64,000 nucleotides of DNA, taken from assembly GCA_026398275.1 (NCBI GenBank), contig JAPLTF010000017.1, positions 100,846 through 164,845 of the forward strand, read 5' to 3'. Below the pieces are notes generated by a model. It saw only the letters and a list, made by a program, of their open reading frames with translations. It did no database searches and was not told where the DNA came from. The position numbers and the translations under genes are program-made. Numbering within the stretch: the stretch's first letter is position 1; every line of letters begins with the position of its first letter. The stretch comes from Verrucomicrobiota bacterium (lineage in GTDB: Bacteria; Verrucomicrobiota; Verrucomicrobiia; Chthoniobacterales; Terrimicrobiaceae). Shown piece by piece: positions 18,016 through 55,352 of the stretch.

Positions 18016-20292
<2,277 letters not shown>

Positions 20293-21732: not shown

Positions 21733-24700
21733 TCAGGCAAGCAGTGTCTTCGCGTGGGCGAGGGCCCGGGGAACCGAAGAGGCATCTTTCCCTCCCCCTC
21801 GCGCGGCATCCGGTTTTCCCCCGCCTTTTCCGCCGACCAGCGGCGCGACAGCCTGGATGATCTTTCCGGCCTGAACGCGTGACGTGAACTCCGGAGAGAC
21901 GGTCGCCACAAGAGCGACGGCGTTGTTGGCGGTTCCTGCAAAGAGGCAGACCCCGGAGAACCTGCCCTTGAGCGCATCGGCAACCGCCTGAAGGTAGTCG
22001 CCATCCACCGGACCAAGGTCAACGGCAAGGAACGGAATCTCCCCGATCTTCTCGGCGCTTCCAACAAGATCCTTGGCCCGTGCGGCAGCCTCGCGGGCGC
22101 GGGCGGCCTTGAGGGATTTCTCCAAATCTTTCTGTTGAGCCAGAATGGACTCGATCTTTTTCTCGATCTCGCCGACCGGGCTGTTGAGTTGGGACGCAAT
22201 CGAAACCAGCCGCTCCCCGTCATGAACCGCATGCGCGCTGGCCTCCAGGCCCGCGATTGCCTCGATCCGCCGGACGCCGGCCGCGATCGCCGCCTCGCCG
22301 AGAATGCGGAAAAGCCCGATCTCTCCGGTCGCCCGCGTGTGAGTTCCGGCGCAGAGTTCCATCGAGTATCCGTCGAGCGCCTTGGCGGCTCCGCCGACCT
22401 GGACCACCCGGACGGTCTCGCCGTATTTGTCGCCGAAGAACTGCATGATGTCCCCGCAGCCGCGCACATCCGCATACGGCACTTCGATCCACGAGACGGC
22501 GGCGTTCTCGACGATCCGCTCATTCACAAGCCGCTCAATGTCGCGCACCTGCGCAGGCGTGAGCGCCTGATGGTTGAAATCAAATGTCAGCTTTTCCGGG
22601 CCGACGAACGAGCCCTTCTGCGTCGCATCCGGGGAAACGACCTCGTGCAACGCCCAGTGCAGCAGATGCGTCACCGAATGGTGGCGCTGGATCGCAGCGC
22701 GACGCGCCACGTCCACGTTGAGCATCACTTCCGCACCGATAGCCGGCGCATCCTCAGAATCCAAAAAGTGGAGCCATGTGTGGCCGGTCTTCTGCGTGCC
22801 CGCAATCCGCCAGACATCAGCCCCGTGAGTGAGTTCGCCGGTGTCACCGACCTGCCCGCCCATCTCGGCGTAGGCCGTGCTCGCATCGAGCACGACGGCG
22901 GTCTTATCCTTGAGGCTGACGACCTCCAGAACCTTCGCCGGAGTTGAGAGCTGATCGTAGCCCACGAACTTTGTCGGCTCCTTGGTCTCGACTTCGGAGA
23001 GTTCGATCACCTGCTTCTTCTGCGCAGCACGCGCCCGCGCCCGCTGCTCGTTCATCAGCTTCTCGAAGCCTTCCGTGTCCACAGCCAGTCCGCGCTCGCG
23101 CGCCATCAGCTCGGTGAGGTCGAGCGGAAACCCCTGCTCGTCATAAAGCCGGAACGCGAACGCGCCGGAAATGGTTGCGGGAGCGCACGCTTCCAGCGTG
23201 CCGGGCTTCGCATCCTGCGGGGCCCCCTCCTGATCCCCGGGATCCCAAGTCCACAGCCAAGGATACCCGCCTTCCGGGTCCGTCAGCCCGCCCTCAATTG
23301 GATTCCGACAAACATAGGAAAACGCCTCCTCCAGCTGCCGCTCGTCACGCATCAGCGTATCAAACGATTCCTTCTCCCAAACCGGGATCGCGGGCGCTTG
23401 TTCCATCCGGTTGATCTCATTTGCGGTATAGGATTTGATTGAGTGAAGCAATTCCGTGAGCGTCCAAAAGACAGCCGTCCCGTCAGCGGACGTTTCCTTG
23501 ATGAAAGGCTGGAACAAGACGTGGACATGGTCGGGCATCACGCAGGTTGCGAACAACTCATAGCGCTGGCCGTCAAAGTGGCGGACCGAGTCGATCACCA
23601 GAGAGCGCGCCGCCGGCGACAAATCCCTACGCTCGTGTGTGGAAAAAGTAACATGGTAAATCCCGTGGGGCCGTTGGTAGTGCGGAAGACGGCGCTTCGT
23701 GTATTTGGCTCCAGAGGACTCCGGCTGGAAGCCGGCGTCGGCACGCTGGAAGCGTGCGCTCCCGGTCGAAATCCCCAGCAATTCGGCAACCTCCGCCTCA
23801 AACAATGCGATCCCCTTGTCCAGCGTCCTGTTGAATGCCTCTTCCTCTCGTCGCAGCACCTCCTCGACGTGCTTCTGCTTCGTCCGGATTTCGGGAAAGA
23901 CATCGCCCATGTTCCGGGCGAGGACATCGACCAGCTTGTAGAAGAACGGCTCGTGGAAGCCGAGCGTGCGGCCGTATTTGACGGCCCTGCGGAGGATGCG
24001 GCGGAGAACGTAGTTGCGGTCGGTGTTCCCCGGCTGGATGCCGTCCGCGATCGCGAAGCTGAGCGTGCGGATGTGGTCGGCTATGACGCGGAATGCGACA
24101 TCGGCCTTCTCCTGCCCGCTTTCGCCGGTGCTGCCCGCCGCCGGGAGGGTGGATCCGTAGGTTTTGCCGCTGAGCTTTTCGATCTCGTCGAAGATCGGCC
24201 GGAAGATATCGGTCTCGTAGTTCGAGATGTTCGCATTGGCGAAATTGGAGAAGCCCTTCGTGCCCTGGATGATCGAGGTGACGCGCTCGAAGCCCATGCC
24301 GGTGTCGACGTGCTGCGCAGGCAGCGGCGTAAACGAGCCGTCCGGGTTGGCGTTGAATTGGATGAACACCAGATTCCAGATCTCGATGCACTCGGCGCTT
24401 CCCTTGTTGACGAGCGCGCCCCTGGTGTCACCGGCGGGGGTCAGGTCCACGTGCAGCTCGGAACACGGCCCGCAGGGGCCGGTCTCGCCCATCATCCAAA
24501 AGTTGTCCTTCTTGTTGCCGTTGACGATATGGACCGCCGGATCCAGACCGGCGCTGCGGAATTTTTCCGCCCACAGTTCGTAGGCTTCCTCGTCGCGCTC
24601 CGCAGGGTCTCCGAGGGATTGGTCCGGATGGTAGATCGTCGCGTAAAGCCGCTGCGGCGGAAACTTCCACCGCCCGACAACGAGCTCCCATGCCCACTCG

Positions 24701-25047
24701 ATGGCCTCCTTTTTAAAATAATCCCCGAAGCTCCAGTTCCCGAGCATCTCGAAAAACGTGTGGTGGTAGGTGTCGAGCCCGACGTCATCGAGGTCGTTGT
24801 GCTTGCCGCCCGCGCGGATGCATTTCTGCGTGTCGGTCGCCCGCGTGTCGCTGCCGGGCACCGCCCCGCCCCATCTGCTGACGTCGGCTTTTTTTTCTCC
24901 GAGAAAGATCGGCACGAACTGGTTCATCCCCGCGTTGGTGAAGAGCAGGTTCGGGCTGTCGGGCATCAGCGACGACGACGGGACGATCGTGTGTTGCTTC
25001 TCGCGGAAGAAATCCAGAAAGGACTGGCGGATTTGGGCGGACGTCAT
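21733..25047 (-). CDS. alaS: Alanyl-tRNA synthetase carrying an in-frame transposase insert
   Basis: 1104 aa from the ATG at 25047; ordinary AlaS proteins have about 870-930. The class II catalytic domain begins MTSAQIRQSFLDFFREKQH (motif 2 and 3 regions intact: FFEMLGNWSFGDYFKKEA, GMGFERV). About residue 428 the AlaS sequence (AEVAELLGIST) is interrupted by about 195 residues of a RAYT transposase and resumes at ATISGAFAFRLYDEQGFPLDL. The editing domain (HSVTHLLHWALHEV, and a C-x3-H metal motif in MELCAGTHTRATGEIG) and the C-Ala domain ending at KTLLA are intact. Removing the insert restores a normal AlaS. AlaS is essential, so the hybrid is presumably functional or the only copy is tolerated. 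Confidence 0.95.
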   Translation of the reverse strand: MTSAQIRQSFLDFFREKQHTIVPSSSLMPDSPNLLFTNAGMNQFVPIFLGEKKADVSRWGGAVPGSDTRATDTQKCIRAGGKHNDLDDVGLDTYHHTFFEMLGNWSFGDYFKKEAIEWAWELVVGRWKFPPQRLYATIYHPDQSLGDPAERDEEAYELWAEKFRSAGLDPAVHIVNGNKKDNFWMMGETGPCGPCSELHVDLTPAGDTRGALVNKGSAECIEIWNLVFIQFNANPDGSFTPLPAQHVDTGMGFERVTSIIQGTKGFSNFANANISNYETDIFRPIFDEIEKLSGKTYGSTLPAAGSTGESGQEKADVAFRVIADHIRTLSFAIADGIQPGNTDRNYVLRRILRRAVKYGRTLGFHEPFFYKLVDVLARNMGDVFPEIRTKQKHVEEVLRREEEAFNRTLDKGIALFEAEVAELLGISTGSARFQRADAGFQPESSGAKYTKRRLPHYQRPHGIYHVTFSTHERRDLSPAARSLVIDSVRHFDGQRYELFATCVMPDHVHVLFQPFIKETSADGTAVFWTLTELLHSIKSYTANEINRMEQAPAIPVWEKESFDTLMRDERQLEEAFSYVCRNPIEGGLTDPEGGYPWLWTWDPGDQEGAPQDAKPGTLEACAPATISGAFAFRLYDEQGFPLDLTELMARERGLAVDTEGFEKLMNEQRARARAAQKKQVIELSEVETKEPTKFVGYDQLSTPAKVLEVVSLKDKTAVVLDASTAYAEMGGQVGDTGELTHGADVWRIAGTQKTGHTWLHFLDSEDAPAIGAEVMLNVDVARRAAIQRHHSVTHLLHWALHEVVSPDATQKGSFVGPEKLTFDFNHQALTPAQVRDIERLVNERIVENAAVSWIEVPYADVRGCGDIMQFFGDKYGETVRVVQVGGAAKALDGYSMELCAGTHTRATGEIGLFRILGEAAIAAGVRRIEAIAGLEASAHAVHDGERLVSIASQLNSPVGEIEKKIESILAQQKDLEKSLKAARAREAAARAKDLVGSAEKIGEIPFLAVDLGPVDGDYLQAVADALKGRFSGVCLFAGTANNAVALVATVSPEFTSRVQAGKIIQAVAPLVGGKGGGKPDAARGGGKDASSVPRALAHAKTLLA
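23178..23203. repeat. Terminal inverted repeat of the RAYT element, distal end
   Basis: 26 bp identical (inverted) to 23739-23764. It contains the hairpin GCACGCT-TCC-AGCGTGC at 23185-23201, a 7-bp stem with a TCC triloop, as expected of a REP sequence recognised by a RAYT. Confidence 0.9.
23721..23764. repeat. Terminal inverted repeat and inner hairpin of the RAYT element, proximal end
   Basis: The 26-bp terminal repeat occupies 23739-23764 with hairpin at 23741-23757. An adjacent hairpin CCGGCT-GGA-AGCCGG occupies 23721-23735. The pair of hairpins next to the transposase start resembles a two-REP (BIME-like) arrangement. Confidence 0.85.
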
Positions 25048-25140
25048 GATTGGTGAGAGGAAAAAGGGAAGTGGGGATGTTGGCAAGCGCTCGGTGAGAT
25101 TGGGAGCATGGAATGCGCTTCGGGAAAAATGCTCACATAT

Positions 25141-25422
25141 TCATTCCCGGATCCGGCTGTGGAAAACCTCGTAGATCCATTTTCGCGGGCCGGCGAACAC
25201 GCAGGTGATCGTTCGAATACCGTGGATCATCTCATACTCGAAGATCACGCGATGCGATCCCACGCGCAGGCGGTGAAAACCTTCCAACTCCTCCACAAGG
25301 GATCTGATGTCGCCCCGCTCATTGGCCAGTGCTTTGATGGCGATGCGGAGCGCATGGCGCGGTTGCGGGGGGAGCTTCCGCAGGTAGTCGAGCACATCCT
25401 CCGTCACCCGCACTGCGATCAT
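25141..25422 (-). CDS. RelE/ParE-family toxin
   Basis: 93 aa with the RelE fold pattern: VTEDVLDYLRKLPPQPRHAL, LVEELEGFHRLRVGSHRVIFEYE and RTITCVFAGPRKWIYEVF. It overlaps the antitoxin gene by 4 bp, with the antitoxin first. Such toxins cleave mRNA at the ribosome or, in the ParE branch, inhibit gyrase; the conserved basic residues favour the RelE branch. It lies just upstream of alaS. Confidence 0.88.
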   Translation of the reverse strand: MIAVRVTEDVLDYLRKLPPQPRHALRIAIKALANERGDIRSLVEELEGFHRLRVGSHRVIFEYEMIHGIRTITCVFAGPRKWIYEVFHSRIRE

Positions 25423-25667
25423 AGCTGATCGAGAACCGACACATCGTGGGAAACACCCCGCCCCTCGCGGTGCTTGCGAATCGCCGCCATGGCTTTCGGA
25501 TCCGCCAAAATCTCCATGGTCTCGGCAATCGACTCCAAACGCTCGATGGACATCATCACCGCAACCGCCTTCCCCTGCTTCGTGATCGTCACCGGATGGT
25601 CGGACGCTTCTTGAACAACAGCCGAAAATCTCTGCTGGGCCGTCTTGATCGTGTAGGAATCGGGCAT
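25419..25667 (-). CDS. Phd/YefM-type antitoxin
   Basis: 82 aa. The N-terminal Phd/YefM DNA-binding part is YTIKTAQQRFSAVVQEASDHPVTITKQGKAVAVMMS, and the tail (ETMEILADPKAMAAIRKHREGRG) would wrap the toxin. It precedes the RelE-like toxin with a 4-bp overlap. An inverted repeat directly upstream is a likely autoregulatory site. Confidence 0.9.
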   Translation of the reverse strand: MPDSYTIKTAQQRFSAVVQEASDHPVTITKQGKAVAVMMSIERLESIAETMEILADPKAMAAIRKHREGRGVSHDVSVLDQL

Positions 25668-55224: not shown

Positions 55225-55352
55225 CGGGGAGCGCACGCGCCCCCGCGTGCGGGCGGCAGCGCCCTCGCTGCCGCGAACTTCCTGCATCCCGGGAGGGAAG
55301 AATGTTTCGGCGGGGCAGCCGAAACCAGCACGCGAGGCGCGTGCGCTCCCCG
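55225..55352. repeat. MITE-like inverted repeat element
   Basis: 17-bp perfect terminal repeats CGGGGAGCGCACGCGCC and GGCGCGTGCGCTCCCCG, with inner hairpins GCAGCG/CGCTGC and TTCGGC/GCCGAA. 128 bp without coding content. The ends share GGAGCGCACGC with the terminal repeat of the RAYT element in alaS. Confidence 0.75.

What the first reader, a model, noticed from the sequence alone, without database searches (positions are those of the whole stretch)
23178..23764. A complete HUH transposase (RAYT) lies in frame inside alanyl-tRNA synthetase
AlaS is essential and normally uninterrupted. Here about 195 codons encoding a Y1/HUH transposase (HVH motif, catalytic Tyr in YVCRNP) are fused between the catalytic and the editing parts of AlaS, with no stop or frameshift at either junction. 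The element has 26-bp perfect terminal inverted repeats, each with a 7-bp hairpin and a TCC/GGA triloop. This behaves like an intein-type intervening sequence but without splicing signals: the transposon persists because it keeps its host gene open. It raises the questions whether the hybrid AlaS is active, whether the transposase domain is active from within it, and whether in-frame insertion is a strategy of these elements.
Basis: partly seen in the sequence, partly recalled or inferred. Interest (0 to 1): 0.93.

Follow-up and report, generated by a model that had tools for sequence, protein, structure and literature searches.

The report
Transposon translated inside essential host proteins
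In this bacterium the only alanyl-tRNA synthetase gene that was found carries, in frame and without a stop, a complete transposase gene bounded by inverted hairpin repeats, and relatives of this element sit in frame inside many other genes, essential ones among them, in several bacterial phyla, so it likely spreads as a passenger domain that is predicted to be made as part of its host protein and tolerated by it.

Summary
The window's alaS, the only one found, has a 202-residue in-frame insert with 26-bp perfect inverted repeats, HUH and tyrosine motifs and a predicted fold closest to E. coli RAYT (4er8). In this genome the insert's three closest relatives are also in frame inside host genes: leuS, a DNA methyltransferase and a C-methyltransferase. 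In the order, 104 of 213 genomes have relatives; of 116 reading frames examined, 105 are embedded in frame in 13 host families: RecG 44, AlaS 14, MetH 14, CarB 12, LeuS 7 and others. Further hosts occur in other phyla. The AlaS loop is empty in two same-genus genomes and holds a lone REP in a third. RecG genes 92-96% identical on both sides carry elements only 66% identical at one site. Insert dN/dS has median 0.19. Best reading: a RAYT-type transposon expressed as an internal protein domain, repeatedly colonising permissive loops and leaving in-frame scars. Transposition, translation and enzyme activity are inferred. Ten paper searches found no description.

The parts
21733..25047 (-). alaS coding sequence with insert, 1104 aa from ATG (open frame to 25086)
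   Evidence: only alaS found in the genome
23167..23772 (-). in-frame insert, 202 codons (aa 439-640 of the 1117-aa frame); outer limits approximate because the loop varies among relatives
   Evidence: comparison with uninterrupted AlaS of relatives
23739..23764 (-). left (5') terminal inverted repeat: tag GGGAGC then hairpin GCACGCT-TCC-AGCGTGC
23720..23736 (-). left second hairpin GCCGGCT-TCC-AGCCGGA
23178..23203 (+). right (3') terminal inverted repeat, inverted copy of the left one
23205..23223 (+). right second hairpin with TCC loop, imperfect
23233..23676 (-). predicted folded Y1/HUH transposase core (aa 471-618)
   Evidence: AlphaFold2; Foldseek best hit 4er8
23521..23529 (-). HUH motif H-V-H (H520, H522)
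   Evidence: invariant in the 70 aligned fused AlaS
23314..23316 (-). predicted catalytic tyrosine Y591 (YVCRNP)
   Evidence: invariant in the 70 aligned fused AlaS

Best explanation
The insert is a RAYT-type (HUH/Y1) transposable element whose reading frame runs from end to end through both hairpin repeats, so that it is likely translated only as an internal domain of the protein of the gene it sits in. Shown by sequence: the frame is continuous; elements of the family sit in frame in many unrelated genes; the same loop is empty, scarred or occupied in related genomes; and host genes that are nearly the same can carry very different elements at one site. Predicted: the repeats are read as disordered linkers that tether a folded transposase to the host enzyme.
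For: Frame and ends. Recurrence: own genome; 105 of 116 frames embedded, 88 with at least 100 aa of open frame on both sides. All 7 LeuS hosts score 871-993 bits against NCBI's LeuS cut-off of 548 with the insert in place, and both ValS pass a ValS cut-off. Movement between genes: insert tree of 111 rows needs 20 label changes for 12 labels (minimum 11; shuffled mean 63.5), with ThrS/AlaS, RecG/MetH and MmeI/C-methyltransferase neighbours (its bootstrap had not settled and two ValS rows were labelled LeuS). Same site: in AlaS 13 of 14 N-flanks end at host residues 452-460, one at 479. Gain/loss: AlaS host tree of 112 rows needs 13 changes, at least 9 by starred branches. Scars: lone REP in AlaS and LeuS of G084; in this genome's own RecG a remnant that matches the left end of G083's RecG element at 37 of 38 bases and its right flank at 29 of 31. 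Replacement: RecG pair L055/L071, DNA identity 91.6% and 96.0% on the two sides, 66.4% within the element (host dS 0.15, insert saturated). Function kept: HUH in 106 of 116, tyrosine with following N in 104 of 116; dN/dS median 0.19, n = 157. Linkers pLDDT about 27-52, core 66-93 within AlaS, core mostly above 90 alone. Tag+hairpin at 113 of 204 ends against 3 of 408 control windows.
Against: Element length between tags is 0, 1 or 2 modulo 3 (7, 22 and 11 of 40 embedded), so the element is not frame-neutral by design. Eight close relatives stand alone between genes and one MetH copy ends 23 aa after the insert (L093). An internal start cannot be excluded: 15 of 94 have an ATG, 58 of 94 an ATG, GTG or TTG, in the 30 codons before the conserved LPH motif. 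Inverted repeats exceed the 99% control level in 59 of 107 only. The REP core of the window element occurs exactly only at its own two ends in this genome, three more times with two mismatches, and the next copy of the transposase is only 46% identical, so there is no sign of recent multiplication here. 199 of 426 same-host pairs fit shared descent of host and insert. In 10 of 116 the HUH motif was not found or had lost its first histidine. Low dN/dS would also fit a domain useful to the host. No expression, transposition or enzyme data.
Confidence: 0.74

Rival explanations
1. Pure survivorship: an ordinary RAYT element inserts anywhere, and in-frame copies in tolerant loops of genes that cannot be lost are what is still seen. 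The frame is not used for expression.
For: Lengths modulo 3 and right-end phase vary; losses with scars occur; more distant relatives in the phylum are often standalone, open frames of about 190-300 aa.
Against: Intergenic copies should then be common, but only 8 close relatives are intergenic among the 116 frames examined, and these too have the repeats inside the reading frame, 7 of 8 with an ATG upstream of the left repeat. Left-end phase is the same in 52 of 58, though descent may explain part of this.
Confidence: 0.15
2. Domestication: the transposase is a useful accessory domain of the host enzymes, for example a nucleic-acid-binding module kept by selection.
For: Purifying selection and conserved catalytic residues; insert and host dS within twofold in 199 of 426 pairs.
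Against: Unrelated hosts (tRNA ligases, CarB, MetH, restriction enzymes, PurH); empty, scarred and swapped alleles among close relatives.
Confidence: 0.07
3. The insert is removed from the product, by protein splicing, RNA splicing or ribosome bypassing over the inverted repeats.
For: Long perfect inverted repeats could bring the junctions together in mRNA.
Against: No intein domain and no intron family; the frame is open throughout and conserved as protein, which removal would not need. Bypassing was not tested.
Confidence: 0.03
4. Assembly chimera.
For: The genome is a 117-contig assembly.
Against: 116 of 120 listed homologues are fused AlaS, on contigs of up to 3.5 Mb.
Confidence: 0.01

Closest known systems
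RAYT / TnpA-REP with REPs (E. coli TnpA-REP, PDB 4er8)
   Same: HUH + single tyrosine, fold, tag (mostly GGAG or GTAG) plus hairpin ends; NCBI's REP_Tyr_transpos model passes its cut-off in the LeuS insert of this genome (81.9 against 80).
   Different: [quoted passage not shown] Here the gene sits inside other genes, in frame, in changing hosts.
TIRYT / TIRtrons (De Nocera 2013, PMC3733652; two sections read)
   Same: RAYT-like transposase gene flanked by inverted repeats, some with self-complementary tracts.
   Different: No in-frame insertion of the transposase in host genes is mentioned in the sections and passages read.
Intragenic REPs and Rickettsia palindromic elements
   Same: Palindromes inserted in frame in genes, including tRNA synthetases and repair genes (PMC3733652).
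   Different: Up to 82 residues, no transposase. Some may be scars or satellites of elements like this one (inference).
Homing inteins
   Same: In-frame occupants of conserved genes, same sites, gain-loss cycle (intein side from recall).
   Different: No splicing domain; the insert is predicted to stay in the protein; the nuclease is of HUH type.
IS200/IS605 TnpA (IS608, ISDra2) and IStrons
   Same: Same fold class and hairpin ends.
   Different: No TnpB domain in the frame and no intron.

Membership tests
RAYT / TnpA-REP superfamily | HUH motif and one catalytic tyrosine | tested here: met
   H520, H522, Y591 invariant in 70 aligned fused AlaS; HUH in 106 of 116, Y..N in 104 of 116
RAYT / TnpA-REP superfamily | fold and sequence profile of TnpA-REP | tested here: met
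   Foldseek best hit 4er8, E 3.9e-8; profile hit 4er8 E 1.2e-8; NF047646 over its cut-off in 2 of 9 hosts scanned (L023, L122), listed below it in 5 and not listed in 2
RAYT / TnpA-REP superfamily | flanking tag + hairpin (REP) | tested here: met
   58 left, 55 right of 102; control 3 of 408; window element
RAYT / TnpA-REP superfamily | one full-length gene per type in a genome (described groups) | tested here: met
   next copy in this genome is 46% identical
RAYT / TnpA-REP superfamily | vertical inheritance (described groups) | tested here: not met
   moves between host genes; different elements in near-identical hosts; part of the pairs fits descent (199 of 426)
RAYT / TnpA-REP superfamily | cleavage of single-stranded REP DNA | not testable with these tools
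   needs biochemistry
TIRYT | transposase gene between inverted repeats | tested here: met
   26-bp perfect repeats; 59 of 107 relatives above the 99% control level
Intein | self-splicing domain | tested here: not met
   no such domain in the Pfam scan at E up to 0.001
IStron / intron-borne element | group I or II intron | tested here: not met
   no Rfam match at E up to 1, window 22900-24000

The most novel reading that the evidence does not exclude
A distinct class of mobile element: host-translated transposons that live as unspliced internal domains of essential proteins, re-colonise the same interdomain loops over and over like homing inteins, move between unrelated genes, and leave in-frame palindromic scars that would explain the long-known REPs and palindromic elements inside bacterial proteins.
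Probability: 0.5. Interest if true: 0.96.

Novelty: new variant of a known kind. Interest (0 to 1): 0.92.

Why it matters
Transposons are expected to destroy the genes they enter. Here a whole transposase gene lives inside conserved enzymes without closing their frame, in hundreds of database proteins (706 and 629 hits; best 120 of each seen) and in several phyla. It offers a natural library of domain insertions in tRNA synthetases, RecG, CarB and MetH, a possible source for in-frame palindromes in bacterial proteins, and an intein-like life cycle without splicing that can be tested. [quoted passage not shown]

Tried and rejected
Assembly chimera: rejected. Second alaS: none found (assembly 98.68% complete). 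Intein or intron: none found. A frame-neutral element of constant length modulo 3: tested and not found. A single ancient insertion in AlaS kept by descent: rejected as the whole story, although the 94 insert-bearing rows came mostly from a search with the insert and over-represent it. Chance palindromes: rejected (the control was a plain base shuffle). Site comparison for CarB is uninformative because CarB is internally duplicated. In the tree two ValS rows (L122, L129) were labelled LeuS; named later by NCBIfam.

Rows dropped: 2 duplicate loci before the 116; 5 short inserts; 29 of 141 rows for coverage (4 are not AlaS; AlaS of G082 and G091 are among them); 9 of 116 elements and 14 of 116 lay too near contig ends. 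Of the matches listed the 29 new loci and 80 others were examined; the remaining listed and all unlisted ones were not, and the ranking was by likeness to the AlaS insert.

Full report
WHAT IS THERE. The window is part of contig C32 of a 4.66-Mb, 117-contig assembly. On the minus strand, 21733-25086, lies one open frame for alanyl-tRNA synthetase with a 202-residue insert, aa 439-640. Uninterrupted relatives have only a few residues at this place: in same-genus genome G082 the loop reads EEHSGLISGEFAF, in G083 RVRGTSAGLSGAFAF. In human AlaRS (4xem) the matched stretches end at residue 419 and resume at 424. The insert begins and ends with inverted repeats of 26 bp, 100% complementary, each a GGGAGC tag, a 7-bp hairpin with TCC loop and a second hairpin. 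No second alaS was found in the genome.

WHAT IT ENCODES. HUH (H520, H522) and Y591 are invariant among 70 aligned fused AlaS, the window included. AlphaFold2 gives a confident core with disordered ends, alone (core blocks pLDDT 83-98, end blocks 45-61) and within AlaS (core 66-93, linkers 27-52; whole-model pTM only 0.48). The best solved match by fold and by sequence profile is the E. coli REP-associated tyrosine transposase bound to a REP hairpin.

IT IS NOT ALONE. A search with the insert region of the AlaS frame found 706 proteins at E up to 1e-4; of the 120 listed, 116 are AlaS, 2 MetH and 2 ThrRS. One search printed 39 of the AlaS: the 37 with both flanks share the junction near host residue 437, and three (P0007, P0010, P0016) carry what looks like a second insert near 315-325. 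In this genome the insert has three further good relatives, each in frame inside another gene: leuS (C51), a Mod-type DNA methyltransferase (C37) and a C-methyltransferase (C31). In the order, 104 of 213 genomes match at E up to 1e-8. I examined 116 distinct open frames: 105 are embedded, in RecG 44, AlaS 14, MetH 14, CarB 12, LeuS 7, ThrS 3, Sua5 3, MmeI 2, ValS 2 and one each of a C-methyltransferase, a DNA methylase, PriA and adenosine deaminase; 11 stand alone, 8 of them close relatives. LeuS and ValS were each named by NCBIfam equivalogs above cut-off; for the other families Pfam named representatives and clustering the rest. That many of these genes are essential is general knowledge. 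Of the 105, 88 have at least 100 aa of open frame on both sides; 14 of the other 17 run off the end of the stretch held; one, MetH L093, ends 23 aa after the insert.

OUTSIDE THE ORDER. In the phylum sample 138 of 387 genomes match; open frames are mostly either about 190-300 aa or 500-2175 aa, and the eight best matches lie in frames of 730-1316 aa. So standalone relatives are common further out. In the genome-contig scan, 22 of 33 Verrucomicrobiota/Lentisphaerota loci and 12 of 47 other loci have at least 80 aa of open frame on both sides (80 loci kept of 332, phylum taken from record titles). Hosts named there by Pfam include an isoleucyl-type ligase, ValS, PurH, HsdR, an Eco57I-type enzyme, a DUF1156 methyltransferase (Viridilinea, Acidobacteria and Methylobacter records), MetH of an Akkermansia and adenosine deaminase; L192 and L217 showed no host domain. 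A second protein search (629 hits, 120 listed) adds HsdR, sulfatase, MoaE, DegT aminotransferase and cytidylate kinase by precomputed Pfam labels.

MOBILITY. On a tree of 111 inserts the host labels need 20 changes where 11 is the minimum and 63.5 the shuffled mean: inserts cluster by host gene but have moved between genes repeatedly. On the AlaS host tree (112 rows) presence of the insert needs 13 changes, 9 forced by starred branches; G083, without insert, falls with the window in a starred group of five (insert-bearing rows are over-sampled). In AlaS the 14 inserts, although from several insert lineages, sit at one place; RecG N-flanks end at 376-404 of 725 in the 42 that could be placed; MetH has two places, 9 and 5, both between domains. 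Among 426 same-host pairs with host dS below 1.6, insert dS is within twofold of host dS in 199, more than twofold above (saturated included) in 221, below half in 6. The extremes show replacement at one site: RecG of G119 and G116 (L055, L071) are 91.6% and 96.0% identical in DNA on the two sides and 66.4% within the element; L063/L071, L074/L098, MetH L037/L070 and RecG L035/L103 look alike, hosts 88-93% and inserts 65-68%. Conversely MetH L043/L087 share an insert (dS 0.38) in more distant hosts (dS 1.29).

SCARS. G084 has in AlaS a lone REP almost identical to the right end of the window element, in frame, and in LeuS a single palindrome at the insertion site. This genome's own RecG has no transposase but an in-frame remnant that matches the left end of the element G083 carries there at 37 of 38 bases and the right end with flank at 29 of 31. 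That this is a deletion product is inferred as the simplest course. Against wide dispersal, the REP core of the window element occurs in this genome exactly only at its own two ends and three times with two mismatches.

FRAME. In 45 elements with both hairpins found, the host frame is open in all 45; the other two forward frames and two reverse frames have stops in all 45, the third reverse frame in 42. So, nearly always, one of six insertion phases is tolerable. The left tag has one codon phase in 52 of 58; the right tag is read in all three phases (29, 13, 13), and length modulo 3 varies. I conclude that the left junction sets expression and that the right junction is adjusted by indels or selection; this is inference.

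SELECTION. Insert dN/dS has median 0.19 (157 pairs, range 0.07-0.47) against 0.14 for hosts (423 pairs) (Nei-Gojobori counts, pairs not independent). With conserved catalytic residues this speaks for an active enzyme rather than only a tolerated fold.

MECHANISM. Published work shows that TnpA-REP of E. coli cuts single-stranded REP DNA and that the GTAG tag is crucial, less so in other systems (PMC8266576, passages). Tags here are mostly GGAG or GTAG. That this family moves in the same way is inference, as is tolerance by the host enzyme, which rests on occupied single-copy genes that still match their family models.

LITERATURE. Searches (open PMC papers only, judged from listings and from passages of five papers: PMC6006769, PMC3733652, PMC8266576, PMC8049555; the fifth, PMC8450116, from its abstract only) found no report of RAYT transposases in frame inside host genes. 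In-frame REPs without transposase are known (PMC3733652).

Noticed in passing
window 55227-55351: Two inverted tag+hairpin REPs about 124 bp apart, a REPIN-like non-autonomous element, between two convergent reading frames.
   Followed up: partly
window 17995 (-): A solo GGAGCG-tagged hairpin just beyond the end of the large frame 18016-20244.
   Followed up: no
G000:C19:42836-43468 (L159): RecG of the window's own genome carries an in-frame REP scar where G083 has a RAYT.
   Followed up: yes
L158 / L099 (G083 RecG): Repeat order looks flipped there: the second hairpin is outermost and the tag faces the transposase, unlike in the window.
   Followed up: no
L033, L040, L075, L082, L084, L108: Standalone close relatives sit between the same two kinds of neighbouring genes in different genomes; the operon looks pilus-like, an impression not tested.
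   Followed up: no
P0007, P0010, P0016: AlaS proteins of 1299-1402 aa with what looks like a second insert near host residue 315-325.
   Followed up: no
L132, L069, L025, L226, L237, L240, L244, L252: Restriction-modification and DNA methyltransferase genes are frequent hosts beside housekeeping genes.
   Followed up: no
window 25141-25667 (-): Next to alaS, two small frames look like a toxin-antitoxin pair of RelE/Phd type; recognised from memory, not tested.
   Followed up: no
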